From positions 1-6,249 of the forward strand of contig JBDROU010000009.1 in NCBI GenBank assembly GCA_043809745.1: DNA of 6,249 bases, given 5' to 3'. The notes beneath the pieces are model-generated. The model did not search any database. It had not been told where the DNA came from and worked only from the letters and a program-made list of their open reading frames with translations. Shown one piece after another: positions 2 through 6,080 of this stretch. Source of the stretch: JBDROU01 sp043809745 [NCBI: bacterium]. GTDB taxonomy: Bacteria > Elusimicrobiota > JBDRMW01. The first letter of the stretch is position 1. Each line of letters begins with the position of its first letter. The position numbers were made by a program, and so were the translations under genes.

Positions 2-3000
2 AAAGGTGGCAGAGACGGCTCGGTGGATTACCTGATTATCACTAGCGACGCTCTAATATCCAGCGGAGTATTTGATCCTCTCCTGACTAGCCGAGAAGAA
101 AGAGGTCTTACAACTAGGATTACATCTGTTGCCTGGATTGAAGCTAACTATGATGGAAGAGATACACAGGAACAAATCAGAAACTACATAAAAGATCTTT
201 ATTTAAATGAGGGGCTCATTTATGTTCTGTTGGGAGGAGATACAAATATTGTTCCTGATCGGAAAGCATATTCTGCAGTTGATGGTAGAGTGCCTTGTGA
301 TATGTATTATTCAGATTTAGATGGTGATTGGGATGACGACGGTGATGATGTTTTCGGCGAACCCAGTGATAATATAGATTTATATCCAGATGTATTTGTT
401 GGCAGGGCGCCTGTTGAAAATCAAACAGAAGCAGCGGCATTTGTTAATAAAACTCTAACATTTGAATCAAAATCTTTTGCCGATTACGATTACAACGGTA
501 GTCGTGCTTTATTTATGGCAGTGGAGATGCCAGATTGGCCGTATGATGGTGGAGAAACTAAAGATTCTATTGATGCTAACATTATGCCGGATAGATTCAA
601 ACCCATAATGAAGCTATATGAGAGAAACGGTGAATTAAATCACGATAATGCCATGGGATCTCTTGAATTAGGTTACTATCTTGTAAATCACATTGAACAC
701 GCTAATATAGACGTATTATACGTCGGTGATGATACTATCAATATTAACGATATTAATAACTTATCAAATGCTCCCTATTTTTCTATCCTCTGGTCTTGTG
801 GTTGCTTTCCAGCAGCTATAGACTATAATTGCATAGCAGAACACTGGGTAACAAATCCTAATGGCGGAGGAGCAGTATTCATCGGTAATAGCCGTCATGG
901 ATTACACCCTGAATCTGACACAATGCTTGATCCTGCATTCTACGCGTCCCTGTTTTTTGATCAGATATATCACGTGGGAGAAACCCTAGCAGATTCAAAA
1001 ATAACTTTTATTTCTCAAGCTCAAGCTAGCTTGTATATGAGACATGCTATGTTTGAATTGAATCTTTTAGGAGACCCTGCTTTAGAAATAGATATGAATA
1101 TGGTGATTAGCGTCCCAAATGACTACCCTACTATCCAAGGAGCAATAGATGTTGCCTATGATGGAGATACAATATTAGTCACACCCGGTGTATATGATAT
1201 AAATGAACCAATATATTTTATGGGTAAGACTATTACATTAAAAAGTAGAGATGGACCAGAGGCTACTATAATTAGAGGGAATAATTCCGAGAAAGTGATA
1301 ACATTTGATGGTTGGGAAGGCCCGGATACTATAATCGATGGTTTTACGATTAAAAATGGATATACCACTAACACTGGCGGCGGGATCTATTGCATAGACT
1401 CCTCCCCCACAATCAAAAACAACATAATCACTAACAATAACGCAGGTTTTGGCGCTGGTATAGGCTGTCTAAACAATGCCTCTCCCACAATTATCAATAA
1501 CACAATAACAGACAATACTGCAGACTATGAAGGTGGAGGTATTGATTGTTACTTCTCTTCTCCTGTAATTACTAATAATATAATCACAGAAAATACCTCA
1601 AATGAAACTGGCGGAGGGATAACCTGCTATAATGCCTCCCCAACAATCACAAACAATATCATCGATGATAATAGCGCAGTGGATACTGGCGGTGGGATTG
1701 ATTGTCGTAATTTATCTTCTCCTGAGATTATAAATAACACAATTGTTAATAATGCTGCTATCTCTGGTGGCGGACTCTCTTCCATCAACTCCACCCCGAC
1801 GATTACAAACTCTATCCTTTGGTTTAATGAGGCTACAAACGAGCCTTCGATCTATTTTGAAGGAAGCTCGCCAACAGTCAGCTACAGTAATGTCGAGTAC
1901 GGCTTTAGTGGAACAGGCAATATTCACGATTCCCCACTTTTCACACACCCAGGAGCTAGAGATTATCATCTTGGTTCACAGTCGCCCTGTATCGATGTTG
2001 CCAATGGTGAAGTTGAGCCCCAGAAGGATTTTGACGGTGAAGAAAGATATGACGACGCTGATGTTGTCAATGGGGGCATTGGCACGCCTGTTTACGTGGA
2101 TATGGGAGTTTTTGAAAGACAAACCGATTCAAATCCAGCAGGATCGATAATCCGTGTTCCCCAGGACCGTACCACTATCCAACATGCAATAAATGATGGT
2201 GTTAACGGAGATTTAATATTAGTCTCACCAGGTACATACAATCCGATAGATTTTATGGGTAAGAATATTACTGTACAAAGTACTGATGGACCAAAGACGA
2301 CAATAATTAGTGGAGATCAGACTTCATATGCGGTGGTTTTCCAAGGAGGCGAAAACTCAAACGCTGTCCTTGATGGGTTTACGATTACGAACGGACACGG
2401 TGGCATTCACTGTACAATCTCCTCTCCCACAATCATCAATAACATAATCACTGAAAATTCTGATTATGAAGGCGGCGGCATCTATGGTTACGGTTCATCG
2501 TCTACGATAAAAAATAACATCATTGTTGAAAATTCTGCCACTGGTACCGGCAGCTCGGGCGGGGGTATTTACTTCTCATATTCTAACCCCACGCTTATCA
2601 ATAACATAATCATCAGAAATACAGCGGGTGCGTATGGCGGCGGGATTCATTTATTTAGTTCCTCTGCGACAATCACCAATAATACTATTACCCTAAACTC
2701 TGCCAACAACTCAGGAGCCGGCATTTATTGCTACGACTCTTCTCCTGCAATTACCAATACCATCATTTGGGGCAATAGCGCGCCCAGCAGTCCCAATATC
2801 CGCGTTTTTGGAAACAGCAACCCGACAGTACGTTATTGCGCTATCCAAGGAGGCTGGAGCGGAGCAGATAATATCAATGCTGACCCTCGCTTCTTAAATG
2901 CTTTCGGCAGCGATTACTATGATTTTGGGCTTAAATCTCATTCGCCTTGCATTGATGCAGCTAATGGCGATGAGGCAACAGATGAGGATTTTGATAATAA

Positions 3001-3142
3001 GCCCAGATTCAACGATAGAAATGTTAGTAATACAGGTGTAGGCACGCCTGAATATACAGATATAGGGGCTTGGGAGAGACAGATACACTCAAGAGGTCCT
3101 GGACCTGAACCAAAACTTATCCTAGAACTCCCTGCGCCTTAA
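2..3142 (+). CDS. Secreted C25 (gingipain-like) cysteine protease with two C-terminal beta-helix modules; 5' partial
   Basis: The frame is open to the left edge. The first possible start (GTG at 23) falls inside the opening strand of the catalytic domain (VDYLIITSD), so the true start, and presumably a signal peptide and propeptide, lie outside the window. Residues below are counted from codon 23. Residues 1-355 match peptidase family C25: YVLLGGD at 67-73, an Asp-rich loop at 98-109, DVFVGRAPV at 123-131, probable catalytic His226 (NHIEHAN), probable catalytic Cys261 (SCGCFPAAID), then CIAEHW and GGGAVFIGNSR. Residues 361-701 and 708-1021 are two right-handed beta-helix modules. Each opens with a VP..xTIQxAI segment, contains coils of about 26 residues marked by GGGI and SPTITNN, and closes with SPCIDxAN and a final xFERQ-type strand. 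The gingipain Ig-like domain is absent, and no recognised sorting domain follows; the chain ends in a short proline-rich tail. The protein probably acts outside the cytoplasm; its substrate cannot be read from sequence. The downstream protease gene is 38 bases away and likely co-transcribed. Confidence 0.88.
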   Translation, partial: KGGRDGSVDYLIITSDALISSGVFDPLLTSREERGLTTRITSVAWIEANYDGRDTQEQIRNYIKDLYLNEGLIYVLLGGDTNIVPDRKAYSAVDGRVPCDMYYSDLDGDWDDDGDDVFGEPSDNIDLYPDVFVGRAPVENQTEAAAFVNKTLTFESKSFADYDYNGSRALFMAVEMPDWPYDGGETKDSIDANIMPDRFKPIMKLYERNGELNHDNAMGSLELGYYLVNHIEHANIDVLYVGDDTININDINNLSNAPYFSILWSCGCFPAAIDYNCIAEHWVTNPNGGGAVFIGNSRHGLHPESDTMLDPAFYASLFFDQIYHVGETLADSKITFISQAQASLYMRHAMFELNLLGDPALEIDMNMVISVPNDYPTIQGAIDVAYDGDTILVTPGVYDINEPIYFMGKTITLKSRDGPEATIIRGNNSEKVITFDGWEGPDTIIDGFTIKNGYTTNTGGGIYCIDSSPTIKNNIITNNNAGFGAGIGCLNNASPTIINNTITDNTADYEGGGIDCYFSSPVITNNIITENTSNETGGGITCYNASPTITNNIIDDNSAVDTGGGIDCRNLSSPEIINNTIVNNAAISGGGLSSINSTPTITNSILWFNEATNEPSIYFEGSSPTVSYSNVEYGFSGTGNIHDSPLFTHPGARDYHLGSQSPCIDVANGEVEPQKDFDGEERYDDADVVNGGIGTPVYVDMGVFERQTDSNPAGSIIRVPQDRTTIQHAINDGVNGDLILVSPGTYNPIDFMGKNITVQSTDGPKTTIISGDQTSYAVVFQGGENSNAVLDGFTITNGHGGIHCTISSPTIINNIITENSDYEGGGIYGYGSSSTIKNNIIVENSATGTGSSGGGIYFSYSNPTLINNIIIRNTAGAYGGGIHLFSSSATITNNTITLNSANNSGAGIYCYDSSPAITNTIIWGNSAPSSPNIRVFGNSNPTVRYCAIQGGWSGADNINADPRFLNAFGSDYYDFGLKSHSPCIDAANGDEATDEDFDNKPRFNDRNVSNTGVGTPEYTDIGAWERQIHSRGPGPEPKLILELPAP
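1103..2125 (+). repeat. Beta-helix module A (first of three homologous modules)
   Basis: This stretch encodes residues 361-701 of the C25 protease. It starts with a cap (VPNDYPTIQGAIDVA), then ILVTPGVY, then a GFTIKNG strand. Six coils follow whose SPT-like turns sit at residues 461, 487, 513, 539, 566 and 590, a spacing of 26, 26, 26, 27 and 24. The last coil reads NSILWFNEA. A SYSNVEYG strand, an SPLF strand, SPCIDVAN and a terminal GVFERQTDS complete the module. Asn-rich turns at equivalent positions suggest an internal asparagine ladder, as in pectate-lyase-like helices. No polysaccharide-lyase active site was recognised, so a structural, binding or surface-attachment role is inferred. 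Confidence 0.8.
2144..3085 (+). repeat. Beta-helix module B (second of three homologous modules)
   Basis: This stretch encodes residues 708-1021 of the C25 protease and follows module A after about six residues. It repeats the same plan: VPQDRTTIQHAI, LVSPGTYNPIDF, a LDGFTITNG strand, and five coils with SPT-like turns at residues 801, 826, 855, 881 and 907. It ends with NTIIWGNSA, AIQGG, NADPRF, SPCIDAAN and GAWERQ. It has one coil fewer than module A. Its opening (SPGTYxPIDF.GK, then a GD/GS.QxxxAV segment) is closer to module C of the next gene than to module A next to it. Confidence 0.8.
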
Positions 3143-3148
3143 TTTTGA

Positions 3149-3162
3149 CGATGCGGGTTTTT
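3149..3162 (+). repeat. Short post-stop motif shared with the 3' flank of the next gene
   Basis: CGATGCGG followed by a T-run begins seven bases after the stop of the C25 gene. The same CGATGCGG plus TTT begins seven bases after the stop of the papain gene, at 5846. The preceding coding ends also align (AGAACT, then CCCTG after a four-base gap). It may be the remnant of a duplicated 3' end, or a functional element. It is not a recognisable terminator because there is no clear stem. Confidence 0.4.
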
Positions 3163-3170
3163 GGTTTTAT

Positions 3171-3174
3171 GGAG
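3171..3174 (+). promoter_or_regulatory. Shine-Dalgarno sequence that decides the start of the papain-type gene
   Basis: GGAG is followed by the six-base spacer ATAATA and then ATG at 3181. This is a near-ideal ribosome binding site. The alternative starts in the same frame are TTG at 3145 and ATG at 3151 and 3169. They lack comparable spacing and would add residues in front of a clean Lys-rich signal-peptide start. The site lies in the 38-base gap after the C25 gene, consistent with translation from a shared message. Confidence 0.75.
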
Positions 3175-3180
3175 ATAATA

Positions 3181-5838
3181 ATGAAAAATAAAATATTCAA
3201 AATAAATTTCGGTTTTGTTTTATTTGTAATTTTCATATTTATTTTTTGGGGTCGACAGCAGAAAACTCTGGCTGAGTTCTTACCCGAAAAGATATGTCCC
3301 GCCCATAAAGAAAATAAATCGATAGGAATGGCAAATCCTGCAGCTGTTTATTGTACTGACCTAGGTTATGAATATAAAGTTGTTAACGACCCTTCTGGTC
3401 AAAAAGGTATGTGTACGTTCCCTGATAAAAGTGAATGTGATGCTTGGAAATTCTTAGCAGGACAATGCGGCCAAGAGTATTCGTACTGTGCACAGCAAGG
3501 CTATGACACAATAACTAAACATGATGGCAAAAATGCATTGTCACGGGATTATGCTGTGTGCGTTACAAAAATGGGCGTGGAAATAGGTGCGGTAACCACC
3601 TTAACTGACTTAAGCGAAAAATCTACTATCGGAAGCGTCCGTCTAGAAAATCACGAACAAGAACACAACCCAGAAGCACTTCCGAAAGACACCCTCCCTA
3701 TAACGCCTCCTTCGTTTGATTGGCGGAATCATAACGGCAGCAATTGGATGACATCAGTAAAAGACCAAGCAGGCTGTGGTTCATGCTGGGCGTTCGCGGC
3801 TGTTGGGTCAGTAGAGGCAGTAAACAACATACACTTAAATAACCCTAATAGTGATATTGACCTTTCAGAGCAATATCTCGTATCTGACTGTTTTGATTCG
3901 GGCAGTTGTGCTGGTGGCTCTATTAGAGAATCTTTACATTATATAGGAGCTAACGGGGTTCCTGACGAGGGTTGTTTTCCATATATTGCTAGCGATGCCG
4001 AATGTTCTGAAAGATGCCCAGACTGGGAATCAAGGTTGACAAGCATAGTTACTACCGGCAGAGTTCCTAATGACCAAGAGGCTATCAAACAACGTCTTAT
4101 TTTGCACGGTCCTCTCGCAGCAAGTGTATATACTAGTGAAGGCGGCGGTTTTGGCGGTATGGGTTATTTCGATTCTAATAATATTTATCGATGCTCTAAT
4201 GAACCTGAGGATCCTTATACAAATCATGTAGTAGTTATTGTTGGTTACAATGATAACTCTGAGTATTGGATTGTTAAAAATAGCTGGGGCAGTTCATGGG
4301 GAGAAGAAGGCTATTTTAAAGTCGGATATGGTGAATGTTTTATAGAAAGCTGGGTTTTTTATGCTGATATGGCAATGCCTGAATGTGGAGACGTAATAAC
4401 AGCAAATACATACTTGAGTAGCGATATCGTGGATTGCCCTGAGCATGGATTAATTATAGACGCTGACAATATTGATTTGGATTGTAAAGGTCATACCATC
4501 AGCGGTCTCGGTACCCCTTTTTCATATGGTGTTGACATTACAGAGAAAGAGTGGTCCGACGTCATGAGGTGCAATATAACTAATTTCTATAGTGGGATTA
4601 AGTTGAAAGATGAAGATTACTGCAAGATAAAAAATAGCTATATCTATAATAATTTTATAGGAATAGATTCATCATTAAGTTGGAATACGGAAATCATTAA
4701 TAACCTTGTGCTTGATAATGAAATTGGTATTTATATTAAAGGGGATGGCCCCAGACATCCTAAGCTCTTTGATAATATTGCGTGCAATAATTTCAGTCAA
4801 GATTTGGAATGTCGGGATAATTATTATCCTTATCCTTCCTTTATCACTGGTAATAATCGTTTTCACAAAGTGGCTCGTTGCGGTGGAGTGATTTATTCGG
4901 ATTGTAATCCTTTGGTTCCGCAAGAGTTTCCAACTATACAAGCGGCTATTGATGATGCCTGTTGTGAGGGAATTCAAATACTCGTTTCTCCCGGCACGTA
5001 TCAACCAATCGATTTTAAGGGTAAAGCGGTTACGGTAAAAAGTCTTGATGGGCCAGCTACTACTATAATTGATGGTAGTCAATCAGGAAGTGCAGTAACC
5101 TTTGAAAGCGGCGAAGGTCCGGATTCAGTATTGGATGGATTTACGATTACCGGTGGACATGATAATATGGGCGGAGGTATTCTCTGTGTCGGTGCTGCCA
5201 CAACTCCGACAATAAAAAATAGTTTCATCATCGGCAACTCTGCTGACTCTAACGGTGGCGGTATCTCTGCGTATTATGCTTCACCCACAATCATAAATAC
5301 AGTCATTGCTGATAACTCAGCTCAATTTGGAGCTGGAATAGATCTTGTTTCTTCTTCTGCATCCATCATAAACAGTACCATCACTGGGAATTCAGCTGTT
5401 TACTCTGGAGGCGGAATCTATAGCGGTGCTCCATCCTCTCCAGAAATAACAAATACAATTATCTGGGGCAATACTGCTGGTTATGAAGAACCAGGCCTTT
5501 ATGCCGAATACCCATATCCTACAATTAGTTATTCAGATATCCAAGGTGGCTGTTCCTATTGTCCAGGAGAAAGAAATATTAATTCTAATCCTCTCTTTGT
5601 AAACGCAAGTGATAATAATTACCGTCTTGGTTCACGCTCACCTTGTATTGATAGAGCTAATGCTGATGCAGCACCAGATTTAGATATAGATGGTAATTCT
5701 AGATATGATGATAGGGGTGTTAGTAATAAAGGAACTGGTGAAATTAACTACGTAGATATAGGTGCATTTGAGAAACAAACTGATTCAGAAGGGATACGTA
5801 GAGGCAAGCTGAGAGAACTTCTTCTCCCTGAGCAATAG
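3181..5838 (+). CDS. Secreted papain-family (C1A) cysteine protease with DUF333-like N-terminus and C-terminal beta-helix
   Basis: Started at ATG 3181 the protein has 885 residues. Residues 1-31 are a signal peptide: basic MKNKIFK, then a hydrophobic FVLFVIFIFIFW core, with likely cleavage after TLA (29-31). Residues 49-100 resemble DUF333 (MANPAAVYC, GMCTFPDKSECDAW, GQC), and 101-145 look like a second, diverged copy. Residues 177-395 are a full papain domain: oxyanion Gln196, catalytic Cys202 in CGSCWAF, His349 in NHVVVIVGY and Asn367 in VKNSWGSSWGEEGYF. No I29 ERFNIN propeptide is visible, so the DUF333 region may take the pro-segment position. Residues 400-545 are a NosD-like solenoid opening with CGDVITANTYLSSDIVDCP. 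Residues 578-868 are beta-helix module C. The tail KLRELLLPEQ is basic and hydrophobic. All catalytic residues are present, so an active exported protease is likely; its target is unknown. It probably shares an operon with the upstream C25 gene. Confidence 0.9.
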   Translation: MKNKIFKINFGFVLFVIFIFIFWGRQQKTLAEFLPEKICPAHKENKSIGMANPAAVYCTDLGYEYKVVNDPSGQKGMCTFPDKSECDAWKFLAGQCGQEYSYCAQQGYDTITKHDGKNALSRDYAVCVTKMGVEIGAVTTLTDLSEKSTIGSVRLENHEQEHNPEALPKDTLPITPPSFDWRNHNGSNWMTSVKDQAGCGSCWAFAAVGSVEAVNNIHLNNPNSDIDLSEQYLVSDCFDSGSCAGGSIRESLHYIGANGVPDEGCFPYIASDAECSERCPDWESRLTSIVTTGRVPNDQEAIKQRLILHGPLAASVYTSEGGGFGGMGYFDSNNIYRCSNEPEDPYTNHVVVIVGYNDNSEYWIVKNSWGSSWGEEGYFKVGYGECFIESWVFYADMAMPECGDVITANTYLSSDIVDCPEHGLIIDADNIDLDCKGHTISGLGTPFSYGVDITEKEWSDVMRCNITNFYSGIKLKDEDYCKIKNSYIYNNFIGIDSSLSWNTEIINNLVLDNEIGIYIKGDGPRHPKLFDNIACNNFSQDLECRDNYYPYPSFITGNNRFHKVARCGGVIYSDCNPLVPQEFPTIQAAIDDACCEGIQILVSPGTYQPIDFKGKAVTVKSLDGPATTIIDGSQSGSAVTFESGEGPDSVLDGFTITGGHDNMGGGILCVGAATTPTIKNSFIIGNSADSNGGGISAYYASPTIINTVIADNSAQFGAGIDLVSSSASIINSTITGNSAVYSGGGIYSGAPSSPEITNTIIWGNTAGYEEPGLYAEYPYPTISYSDIQGGCSYCPGERNINSNPLFVNASDNNYRLGSRSPCIDRANADAAPDLDIDGNSRYDDRGVSNKGTGEINYVDIGAFEKQTDSEGIRRGKLRELLLPEQ
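4912..5784 (+). repeat. Beta-helix module C (third homologous module, in the papain-type gene)
   Basis: This stretch encodes residues 578-868 of the papain-type protein. It starts VPQEFPTIQAAIDDA, then LVSPGTYQPIDFKGK, SLDGPATTIIDG and LDGFTITGG. Four coils follow with SPT-like turns at residues 675, 701, 726 and 753 (spacing 26, 25, 27). It ends with NTIIWGNTA, SYSDIQGG, NSNPLF, SPCIDRAN and GAFEKQTDS. It is homologous to modules A and B of the upstream gene and closest to B. Confidence 0.8.
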
Positions 5839-5845
5839 ACTTAGC

Positions 5846-5856
5846 CGATGCGGTTT
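5846..5856 (+). repeat. Second copy of the post-stop motif
   Basis: CGATGCGGTTT lies just behind the stop codon of the papain-type gene, at nearly the same distance as its counterpart at 3149 behind the C25 gene. Together with the aligned last codons, it suggests the two genes inherited a common 3' end that includes non-coding bases. Confidence 0.4.
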
Positions 5857-5877
5857 CTAGCAATCCTAAAATACTCA

Positions 5878-5899
5878 ATTACAATCCCAAAAACTTAAT
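5878..5899. repeat. Direct repeat, left copy, flanking the hairpin cluster
   Basis: These 22 bases match 6059-6080 at 20 positions, with an offset of 181 bases. The core is ATTACAATCCCAA. On the minus strand both copies read IKFLGL plus stop, and the two differences fall on third codon positions (TTT/TTC and AAG/AAA), so both are synonymous. A weaker third copy (CAATCCTAAAATACTCAATT) precedes this one at 5861-5880. Confidence 0.6.
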
Positions 5900-5901
5900 G
5901 A

Positions 5902-5942
5902 GTCCAAACTTATGGAGCGCTAGCGAACATAAGTTTGTGGAC
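5902..5942. repeat. Hairpin 1 of the convergent intergenic region
   Basis: AAACTTATG (5906-5914) pairs perfectly with CATAAGTTT (5928-5936). An outer GTCC (5902-5905) pairs with GGAC (5939-5942) once the GT at 5937-5938 is bulged out. The 13-base loop is GAGCGCTAGCGAA, which contains the self-complementary CGCTAGCG. No T-run follows, so a simple rho-independent terminator is not supported. The structure is symmetric enough to form on RNA from either strand. Confidence 0.7.
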
Positions 5943-5945
5943 GAA

Positions 5946-6005
5946 TTAACCCCCCACCCAGATACTACGAAGAATCGCTACGAAGTTTCTGGGTGCGGGG
6001 TTTAA
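5946..6005. terminator. Hairpin 2, GC-rich; possible bidirectional terminator
   Basis: CACCCAGA (5955-5962) pairs with TCTGGGTG (5988-5995). After one C/C mismatch, CCCC (5950-5953) pairs with GGGG (5997-6000), then AA with TT. TT/AA pairs extend the stem if T6003 is bulged. The 25-base loop contains CTACGAAG twice (5965-5972 and 5978-5985). It is the most stable of the three stems and lies between convergent genes, so transcription termination in both directions is plausible. Only a short TTT follows on the plus strand and a short TT on the minus strand, so the terminator call is tentative. Confidence 0.45.
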
Positions 6006-6012
6006 GTCGATC

Positions 6013-6051
6013 AGACAATTTACGTCACTGTCGTTCCGTAAATTGTGGTCT
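6013..6051. repeat. Hairpin 3 of the convergent intergenic region
   Basis: AATTTACG (6017-6024) pairs with CGTAAATT (6037-6044), and an outer AGAC (6013-6016) pairs with GTCT (6048-6051) if GTG at 6045-6047 is bulged; alternatively, a continuous 10-base-pair stem ACAATTTACG/CGTAAATTGT forms. The loop TCACTGTCGTTC, read on the minus strand, is GAACGACAGTGA, which matches 8 of 12 positions of the hairpin 1 loop. There is no adjacent T-run. Confidence 0.7.
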
Positions 6052-6058
6052 CTTAAAA

Positions 6059-6080
6059 ATTACAATCCCAAGAATTTAAT
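6059..6080. repeat. Direct repeat, right copy, flanking the hairpin cluster
   Basis: This is the partner of 5878-5899 (20 of 22 identical). The copy is the last part of the membrane-helix-like open stretch on the minus strand at 6060-6131, encoding its final IKFLGL and stop. The two copies bracket all three hairpins, with only one to seven bases between the repeats and the outermost stems. Confidence 0.6.

What the first reader, a model, noticed from the sequence alone, without database searches (positions are those of the whole stretch)
2..5838. Two unrelated cysteine proteases on the same beta-helix scaffold in one probable operon
Seen: the first gene has C25 (clan CD) motifs with His226 and Cys261, the second has papain (clan CA) Cys202/His349/Asn367, and both end in homologous beta-helix modules of about 26-residue coils. 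The genes are 38 bases apart on one strand. Established: C25 and C1A are evolutionarily unrelated folds. Inference: different catalytic heads were combined with a common C-terminal scaffold, perhaps so both proteases sit on the same surface or matrix. The arrangement could be a small exported degradation system.
Basis: partly seen in the sequence, partly recalled or inferred. Interest (0 to 1): 0.62.

Follow-up and report, generated by a model that had tools for sequence, protein, structure and literature searches.

The report
Two proteases sharing an interchangeable tail
A stretch of DNA from an unidentified microbe carries two neighbouring genes for unrelated, probably secreted protein-cutting enzymes that end in the same kind of spiral-shaped tail; the tail is an add-on seen on many other proteins, so the pairing is real but fairly ordinary.

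Summary
Gene 1 (nt 2-3142, start missing) is a gingipain-type C25 peptidase with two beta-helix modules; gene 2 (nt 3181-5838) is DUF333, papain C1A, a NosD-like helix and one such module. Catalytic residues are intact. The modules are homologous (42-49% identical), and similarity continues through the C-terminal tails past the stop codons. The pairing looks local. The module is generic: 80 loci from many phyla, and 0 of 57 other module proteins scanned have C25 or C1. C25 lies near C1 in 5 of 60 sampled regions (2.2 expected, P=0.075). The three nearest gene-2 homologues found have other tails and no C25 in the DNA held. In a TA06 genome, adjacent C25 and C1 genes share a different tail that has 90 matches in that genome. 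Best reading: two exported scavenging proteases given one common tail, as described for the KLIKK proteases of Tannerella. Against it: in half of ten genomes compared, C25 and C1 proteins share no tail. Host, close relatives and co-transcription could not be examined. Interest is low to moderate.

The parts
2..3142 (+). Gene 1 (5' end cut off by the window edge): gingipain-type C25 peptidase with two C-terminal beta-helix modules
   Evidence: ORF; Pfam C25 2.4e-56 and Beta_helix
29..1087 (+). C25 catalytic domain
   Evidence: Pfam residues 10-362; AlphaFold2 model pLDDT 94.0; VIA-align Z 41.6 to RgpB 4ief_B, rmsd 2.3, 323 aligned
698..700 (+).
   Evidence: shared by 28 of 32 other C25 rows
803..805 (+).
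   Evidence: shared by 32 of 32 other C25 rows
1103..2122 (+). Beta-helix module 1
   Evidence: 43% identical to module 2 and 42% to module 3
2147..3082 (+). Beta-helix module 2, ending in a choice-of-anchor Q match
   Evidence: 49% identical to module 3; choice_anch_Q residues 967-1027; AlphaFold2 pLDDT 90.9 for module plus tail; Z 26.1 to rhombotarget A 9cdv_B
3083..3139 (+). Short C-terminal tail of gene 1
   Evidence: tail plus 3' flank resembles that of gene 2; 3 of 2000 shuffles score as high
3131..3162 (+). Weak hairpin and T-run overlapping the gene 1 stop
   Evidence: -7.3 kcal/mol; the 101-nt region around it folds no better than shuffles, z 0.00; not reported by the terminator scan
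3144..3159 (+). 16-nt block just after the gene 1 stop, 14 of 16 aligned bases shared with nt 5841-5856
   Evidence: 15 of 5000 shuffled pairs score as high
3181..5838 (+). Gene 2: signal-peptide-like N-terminus, DUF333, papain-type C1A peptidase, NosD-like helix region, one beta-helix module
   Evidence: ORF; Pfam; signal peptide judged by eye only
3325..3462 (+). DUF333 domain
   Evidence: Pfam 1.2e-19, residues 49-94
3706..4362 (+). C1A papain catalytic domain with Cys202 (nt 3784-3786), His349 (4225-4227), Asn367 (4279-4281)
   Evidence: Pfam residues 176-394; best PDB sequence match dipeptidyl peptidase I, 9.9e-35; positions
4441..4905 (+). NosD-like beta-helix region between protease and module
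   Evidence: Pfam NosD and Beta_helix stretches; a NosD match follows the protease in L219 and L255 too
4909..5778 (+). Beta-helix module 3, ending in a choice-of-anchor Q match
5779..5835 (+). Short C-terminal tail of gene 2
5841..5856 (+). Second copy of the post-stop block

Best explanation
Two exported cysteine endopeptidases of unrelated clans (C25 and C1A) serve extracellular protein scavenging in an uncultured microbe. Each carries a right-handed beta-helix/choice-of-anchor Q module used as an interchangeable C-terminal tail, probably one common in its lineage, and the module works as a stalk or attachment part rather than as a third enzyme. The shared tail arose by duplication and exchange of a 3' gene segment (module, short tail, stop codon and a few bases beyond), not by joint evolution of a dedicated two-protease machine. 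Shown: domain content, intact catalytic residues, homology of the modules and of the gene 3' ends, occurrence of the module on many other proteins, different tails on homologues of each gene. Inferred: secretion, surface retention, substrate, co-transcription, and that the module is a common tail of this particular host.
For: Domains and residues; C25 model Z 41.6 to RgpB; module model Z 26.1 to rhombotarget A. Modules 42-49% identical in protein, 65-67% in DNA; similarity continues past the stop codons. Module in 80 loci of many phyla; 0 of 57 other module proteins scanned have C25 or C1. Gene 2's DUF333-C1-NosD part recurs with a dockerin tail (L219) and a type IX sorting tail (L255), and DUF333-C1 with GEVED (L141); the C25 profile found nothing on those stretches. 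Of the four best C25 relatives, L142 ends in a type IX tail, L144 in InlB-type repeats, L096 has PKD but is cut before its end, and L101 has a beta-helix region; no C1 on their stretches and no C1 match in their four genomes. TA06 genome: adjacent C25 and C1 share a 108-residue tail (43% identical) that has 90 matches in that genome. C25/C1 tails alike in 33 of 55 same-genome pairs against 231 of 1375 cross-genome pairs.
Against: The host genome is not held, so that the module is common in this lineage is inferred. The same-genome tail excess rests mostly on one genome, 24 of the 33 pairs; all genomes together 13 of 2000 label permutations reach the observed share, without that genome 187 of 2000 (9 of 31 against 157 of 1031). 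In 5 of 10 genomes no C25/C1 pair shared a tail, among them G352, the genome of the nearest gene-2 homologue. C25 near C1 is mildly above expectation (5 against 2.2), which leaves room for weak co-localisation. L101 shows a C25 gene (interrupted by a TGA) leading into a region that matches the module profile, so C25 plus this kind of helix is not unique. No known anchor or sorting signal was recognised at either C-terminus. The 3'-end test uses simple base shuffles.
Confidence: 0.7

Rival explanations
1. A dedicated, co-selected two-protease unit: C25 and C1A are co-transcribed and co-displayed through interacting beta-helix modules to attack one substrate in two ways.
For: 38-nt gap, same strand, homologous modules. 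Same-strand neighbours elsewhere: L186 with 59 nt and L192 with 347 nt between open frames; TA06 L143 with 28 nt between the ATG- and GTG-started ORFs.
Against: No partner found on the stretches of the nearest homologues, and no C1 match at all in the genomes of the four best C25 relatives. L186 shares no tail; L192's C25 frame ends inside the catalytic domain, so its tail cannot be judged. Only 5 of 60 regions have both. The TA06 tail has 90 matches in its genome. A weak hairpin lies between the window genes.
Confidence: 0.16
2. The module is itself an enzyme (polysaccharide lyase or epimerase-like), so each protein is a protease plus a matrix-polysaccharide enzyme.
For: The fold searches list alginate and pectate lyases, epimerases and pectin methylesterases beside rhombotarget A.
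Against: Right-handed beta-helices match one another broadly. Among the 25 of 64 Pfam families shown for the 59 module proteins, the only such enzyme family is a weak pectinesterase match in 2; the other 39 families were not shown. No active-site residues were tested.
Confidence: 0.08
3. Chance neighbours: genes of secreted proteins that lie side by side, each having acquired a common module independently, with no functional link.
For: Module generic; C25/C1 proximity not clearly above expectation.
Against: Similarity of the two 3' ends extends past the stop codons at nearly the same offset, 1 and 2 bases, which favours one exchange within this genome over two independent acquisitions.
Confidence: 0.25

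Closest known systems
KLIKK proteases of Tannerella forsythia (PMC5445135, passages seen)
   Same: Proteases of unrelated catalytic types in one organism bear a nearly identical C-terminal domain.
   Different: Three metallo- and three serine proteases with a type IX-type tail; here two cysteine protease clans with beta-helix modules and no recognised sorting tail.
Dockerin-bearing enzymes of Candidatus Stygibacter, including a C25 and an S8 peptidase (PMC8542988, passages seen)
   Same: One C-terminal tail type on different exported enzymes of an uncultured lineage.
   Different: The tail is a dockerin for cohesin binding; no dockerin match was reported for the window proteins.
Gingipains RgpB and Kgp (family C25)
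   Same: Catalytic fold and His/Cys dyad.
   Different: Beta-helix modules in place of an Ig-like domain and type IX tail (the latter from PMC5445135 passages); the N-terminal part of gene 1 is not in the window.
Rhombotarget A
   Same: Beta-helix fold of the module, Z 26.1, 268 residues aligned, 18% identity.
   Different: I recall no protease head on rhombotarget A; no GlyGly-type end was reported for the window proteins.
Adjacent C25 and C1 peptidases of a TA06 genome (L143)
   Same: Divergent C25 and C1 genes side by side with a shared C-terminal tail.
   Different: The tail is a 108-residue domain without a Pfam match (Ig-like is my guess) that has 90 matches in that genome.

Membership tests
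Peptidase family C25 | Profile match over the catalytic domain | tested here: met
   2.4e-56, profile 1-373 of 374
Peptidase family C25 | His/Cys dyad | tested here: met
   H233 in 28 of 32 and C268 in 32 of 32 other rows
Peptidase family C25 | Gingipain fold | tested here: met
   Z 41.6 to RgpB, rmsd 2.3, 323 aligned
Peptidase family C25 | N-terminal propeptide | not testable with these tools
   gene 1 is cut by the window edge
Peptidase family C1A | Profile match and Cys/His/Asn | tested here: met
   5.9e-46; residues 202, 349, 367
Peptidase family C1A | Proteolytic activity | not testable with these tools
   needs an assay
Choice-of-anchor Q proteins (NF041518) | Match over the curated cut-off | tested here: met
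   28.5 bits (gene 1) and 25.7 bits (gene 2) against a cut-off of 25
Type IX secretion cargo | C-terminal sorting domain (Por_Secre_tail) | tested here: not met
   not among the matches at E up to 1 for either protein
PorU sortase (NF033707) | Match over the curated cut-off | tested here: not met
   52.1 bits against 420
Conserved C25-C1A gene pair | Neighbourhood kept in the relatives examined | tested here: not met
   5 of 60 regions against 2.2 expected; none on the stretches of the nearest homologues. Close relatives of the host were not available

The most novel reading that the evidence does not exclude
A DUF333-C1A protease core, seen in the window, in two genomes of one bacterial phylum and on one contig that also carries an archaeal-type ribosomal protein S12 gene, travels between lineages and is refitted each time with an export or attachment tail of the receiving lineage; in the window it has been matched to a gingipain by copying the 3' end, beta-helix and all, so that two unrelated proteases dock at the same place.
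Probability: 0.18. Interest if true: 0.5.

Novelty: new variant of a known kind. Interest (0 to 1): 0.27.

Why it matters
It is a clean small example of modular protein evolution in uncultured microbes: unrelated catalytic heads fitted with one interchangeable tail, with traces of how the tail was copied. It also warns that a shared domain in two neighbouring genes need not mean a joint machine when the domain is generic. C25 and C01A peptidases are both reported as expressed in sedimentary Thermoprofundales archaea (PMC6461988, passages seen), so such tails bear on how protein-degrading enzymes are held outside cells.

Tried and rejected
Single-protein scans of viral contigs with gene 2 and with the C25 head found no relatives, nor did the module alignment there. 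A phage-record search with gene 2 gave three C1 matches at 26-28% identity. A PDB sequence search for gene 1 found nothing at E 0.01, although the fold comparison did. Host: no whole genome is held. In 237 Omnitrophota genomes, 49 matched the DUF333-C1 profile, one strongly (2.3e-56, covering the C1 part, open frame 321 aa). The TA06 phylum holds only that one genome. Alignments mixing heads and modules were not used for folding: one misplaced the C25 rows and the other spread the module rows. No Rfam match. Literature: 'peptidase C25' with beta-helix or C1A gave 11 papers, none holding 'peptidase C25'; 'gingipain' with 'parallel beta-helix' gave none holding both; 'DUF333' with papain gave one, whose hit is DUF3335; C25, C1A and same operon gave two, judged from the listing as not on this arrangement. 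Searches were used as listings; passages of PMC8359207 gave only background on C25 in Black Sea genomes. That such a pair is not described rests on these searches alone.

Considered and dropped: GTG at nt 23 as start of gene 1 (the frame is open to the edge); a dedicated two-protease machine; the module as an enzyme.

Limits of the counts. In some searches, 40 of the 80 module loci were given, lying in 39 genomes; same-contig comparison was by eye on the listed rows, and the C25 list was truncated, as were those. The 60 C1 regions: 20 from among the first 22 rows (one row dropped because its small contig had been fetched, one because it lay in a region already taken), and 40 taken at about every third row, with one row replaced by the next usable one to avoid overlap; L219 came in by that replacement. 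Several regions are shortened by contig ends. The local C25 profile missed the divergent C25 of L143, so 5 of 60 may be low. Density used 256 C25 matches by Pfam at E 0.001 in 103.1 Mb of rounded genome sizes, a looser test than the local one. Pfam was run on 57 of 68 qualifying module proteins because of the residue limit. In one search the C25 loci and part of the C1 loci have only 1.5-kb flanks, so module carriers are undercounted there. In one search, 22 of 26 C25 frames and 65 of 68 C1 frames were used; frames open at an edge or with under 60 residues after the catalytic domain were dropped. Of the five C25/C1 regions, the C25 frame of L192 ends inside its catalytic domain and that of L211 is cut by the contig edge, so their tails cannot be judged.

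Full report
What is there. The window holds two + strand genes and about 410 nt of downstream DNA. Gene 1 runs from the window edge to nt 3142 and lacks its start; gene 2 starts with an ATG at nt 3181 behind a GGAG (by eye) and ends at nt 5838. Gene 1 is a C25 peptidase (2.4e-56) followed by two beta-helix modules; gene 2 is DUF333 (1.2e-19), C1 peptidase (5.9e-46), a NosD-like helix region and one module. Both proteins match choice-of-anchor Q near their ends (28.5 and 25.7 bits, cut-off 25). No tRNA and no Rfam family were found.

Catalytic residues. In an alignment of 33 C25 heads the window Cys (residue 268 from nt 2) is shared by 32 of 32 others and the His (233) by 28 of 32. The C25 head folds with pLDDT 94.0 and matches RgpB at Z 41.6, rmsd 2.3, 323 aligned residues. 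The papain triad is at 202, 349 and 367 of gene 2; the closest PDB sequence is dipeptidyl peptidase I at 9.9e-35. Both enzymes therefore look active; activity was not tested.

The modules. They are 42%, 43% and 49% identical pairwise and 65-67% in DNA. Module 2 with its tail folds with pLDDT 90.9; its best structural match is rhombotarget A, Z 26.1, 268 aligned, 18% identity, followed by many polysaccharide-active beta-helix enzymes and phage tailspikes. The heads show no similarity to each other (best E 0.28). A 16-column block 1 and 2 bases after the two stop codons has 14 identities (15 of 5000 shuffled pairs score as high), and tail plus flank together are matched by 3 of 2000. I read this as a 3' segment copied within this genome; these are simple base shuffles, so the evidence is moderate.

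Is the module specific? One genome scan found 193 pattern stretches, of which 89 encode relatives; the best 80 became loci, with titles from many bacterial phyla and some archaea. Of 68 qualifying module proteins in them, 57 were scanned with Pfam: none has C25 or C1, 2 have S8, and others have RCC1, PD40, Ig, PKD, dockerin or sorting-tail matches (25 of 64 families shown). In a wider set of held ORFs the module profile hit 2 of 41 C25 ORFs (the window, and the second half of a C25 gene interrupted by a TGA in L101) and 1 of 124 C1 ORFs (the window). So the module is generic, and cysteine proteases are unusual carriers in this sample.

Is the pair conserved? Of 39 module-bearing genomes (40 of the 80 loci), 28 have C25 and 16 have C1 at E 0.001; only one contig (TA06, L143) holds both among the listed rows. 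Of 60 C1-centred regions from two phyla, 895 kb in all, 5 also hold C25 (L186, L192, L197, L211, L216). The 33 genomes concerned have 256 C25 matches in about 103 Mb, so 2.2 are expected, and P(5 or more) is 0.075. L186 and L192 have the two frames close on one strand (59 and 347 nt between open frames); L197 and L216 lie 3.4 and 1.8 kb apart. L197 shares a 68-residue dockerin-type tail (71% identical) and L216 a 400-residue C-terminal part (38%); L186 shares none; the C25 frames of L192 and L211 are incomplete, so their tails cannot be judged.

Nearest homologues. Gene 2 aligns at 46% over 500 columns with L219, 43% over 521 with L255, and 42% over 396 with L141. L219 is DUF333-C1-NosD-dockerin; L255 is DUF333-C1-NosD-type IX sorting tail; L141 is DUF333-C1-GEVED with a membrane-anchor-like end seen by eye. 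L141's contig carries an S12 gene that passes the archaeal/eukaryotic model (158.5 against 140.2 bits) and not the bacterial one (46.5 against 112.95); it is below the cut-off of a third S12 model (164.8 against 196). I take it as probably an archaeal contig in a bacterial bin. The C25 profile found nothing in L219 (9.2 kb), L255 (19.9 kb) or L141 (4.4 kb); L255 does hold a beta-helix protein matching the module profile (6.6e-27), 4.3 kb from the protease gene. Strong matches to the DUF333-C1 profile are few: 2 of 132 and 3 of 245 genomes at E 1e-50, each count including the genome that gave a row to the query, and two of the latter three cover the C1 part only.

The four best C25 relatives by local comparison are L142/L092, L144/L098, L096 and L101. 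L142 ends in a type IX tail, L144 in InlB-type repeats, L096 has PKD but runs off its contig, and L101 has a beta-helix region. None has C1 on the stretch held, and their genomes (G039, G006, G008, G020) have no C1 match at all.

A parallel. In L143 a divergent C25 gene (4.8e-9) and a divergent C1 gene (3.1e-7) stand side by side, 28 nt apart by ATG/GTG starts, and share a 108-residue tail at 43% identity; the tail has no Pfam match, and calling it Ig-like is my guess. A frame with an InhA-like MAM domain precedes them and carries the tail too; the search found 90 matches in that genome, the query included. There the shared tail of two neighbouring proteases is simply a tail common in the genome. 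In ten other genomes with both kinds of complete frames, C25 and C1 tails were alike in 33 of 55 same-genome pairs against 231 of 1375 cross-genome pairs (13 of 2000 label permutations reach this). One genome gives 24 of the 33; without it 9 of 31 against 157 of 1031 (187 of 2000). In 5 of the 10 genomes no pair shares a tail, among them G352, home of L219. So tail sharing between the two protease kinds is common but not a rule.

Mechanism. Most likely both proteins are exported, mature to active cysteine endopeptidases and are held outside the cell through the beta-helix part, together widening the range of proteins that can be cut. Export of gene 2 rests on a signal-peptide-like start judged by eye; that of gene 1 on its family. 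What the module binds is unknown. Co-transcription is plausible from the 38-nt gap. A weak hairpin with a T-run lies between the genes (-7.3 kcal/mol), but the region does not fold better than shuffles and the terminator scan did not report it.

Known background. Proteases of different catalytic types sharing one C-terminal domain are described: the KLIKK proteases of Tannerella (PMC5445135, passages), and dockerins on C25, S8 and glycoside hydrolases of Candidatus Stygibacter (PMC8542988, passages). C25 and C01A peptidases are reported as expressed in Thermoprofundales (PMC6461988, passages). The window adds a variant with beta-helix modules. I found no paper on this exact arrangement in the searches named in Tried and rejected.

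Verdict. Observation confirmed; interpretation partly supported; interest 0.27. On checking, confidence in the best explanation was lowered slightly (0.72 to 0.70) and the novel reading from 0.20 to 0.18, because half of the ten genomes compared, that of the nearest gene-2 homologue included, show no shared C25/C1 tail; the dedicated-pair rival rises from 0.15 to 0.16 because two of the five neighbour pairs cannot be judged for tails. What I would most like to know is the host, and how many of its other secreted proteins carry the module.

Noticed in passing
window 5896-6056: Three consecutive hairpins downstream of gene 2 (nt 5896-5948, 5949-6001, 6002-6056); the 282-nt region folds at z -5.56 with 0 of 200 shuffles as good. 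Two copies of a 23-nt repeat (91% identical) flank them at 5877-5899 and 6058-6080. No Rfam match.
   Followed up: partly
window 3181-4908; L219:1236-3935; L255:8566-10728: DUF333-C1A-NosD-helix protein architecture shared by the window and two genomes of one phylum, with different C-terminal tails.
   Followed up: yes
L141 (4382 nt): DUF333-C1 protease gene on a contig with an archaeal-type S12 gene, in a genome whose locus L022 is titled 'bacterium'; probably a contaminant archaeal contig.
   Followed up: yes
L143 and genome G001: A 108-residue C-terminal tail with 90 matches in one TA06 genome, on C25, C1 and InhA-MAM-type frames that stand next to one another.
   Followed up: partly
L101:595-4125: C25 gene with one in-frame TGA whose second half leads into a beta-helix region matching the module profile.
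   Followed up: no
L036:2471-6660: A C1 peptidase with lectin-like domain and type IX tail is followed, with 17 nt between open frames, by a separate beta-helix module gene: protease and helix as neighbours instead of a fusion.
   Followed up: no
L255:682-4260: A beta-helix protein matching the module profile lies 4.3 kb from the DUF333-C1 gene of genome G399.
   Followed up: no
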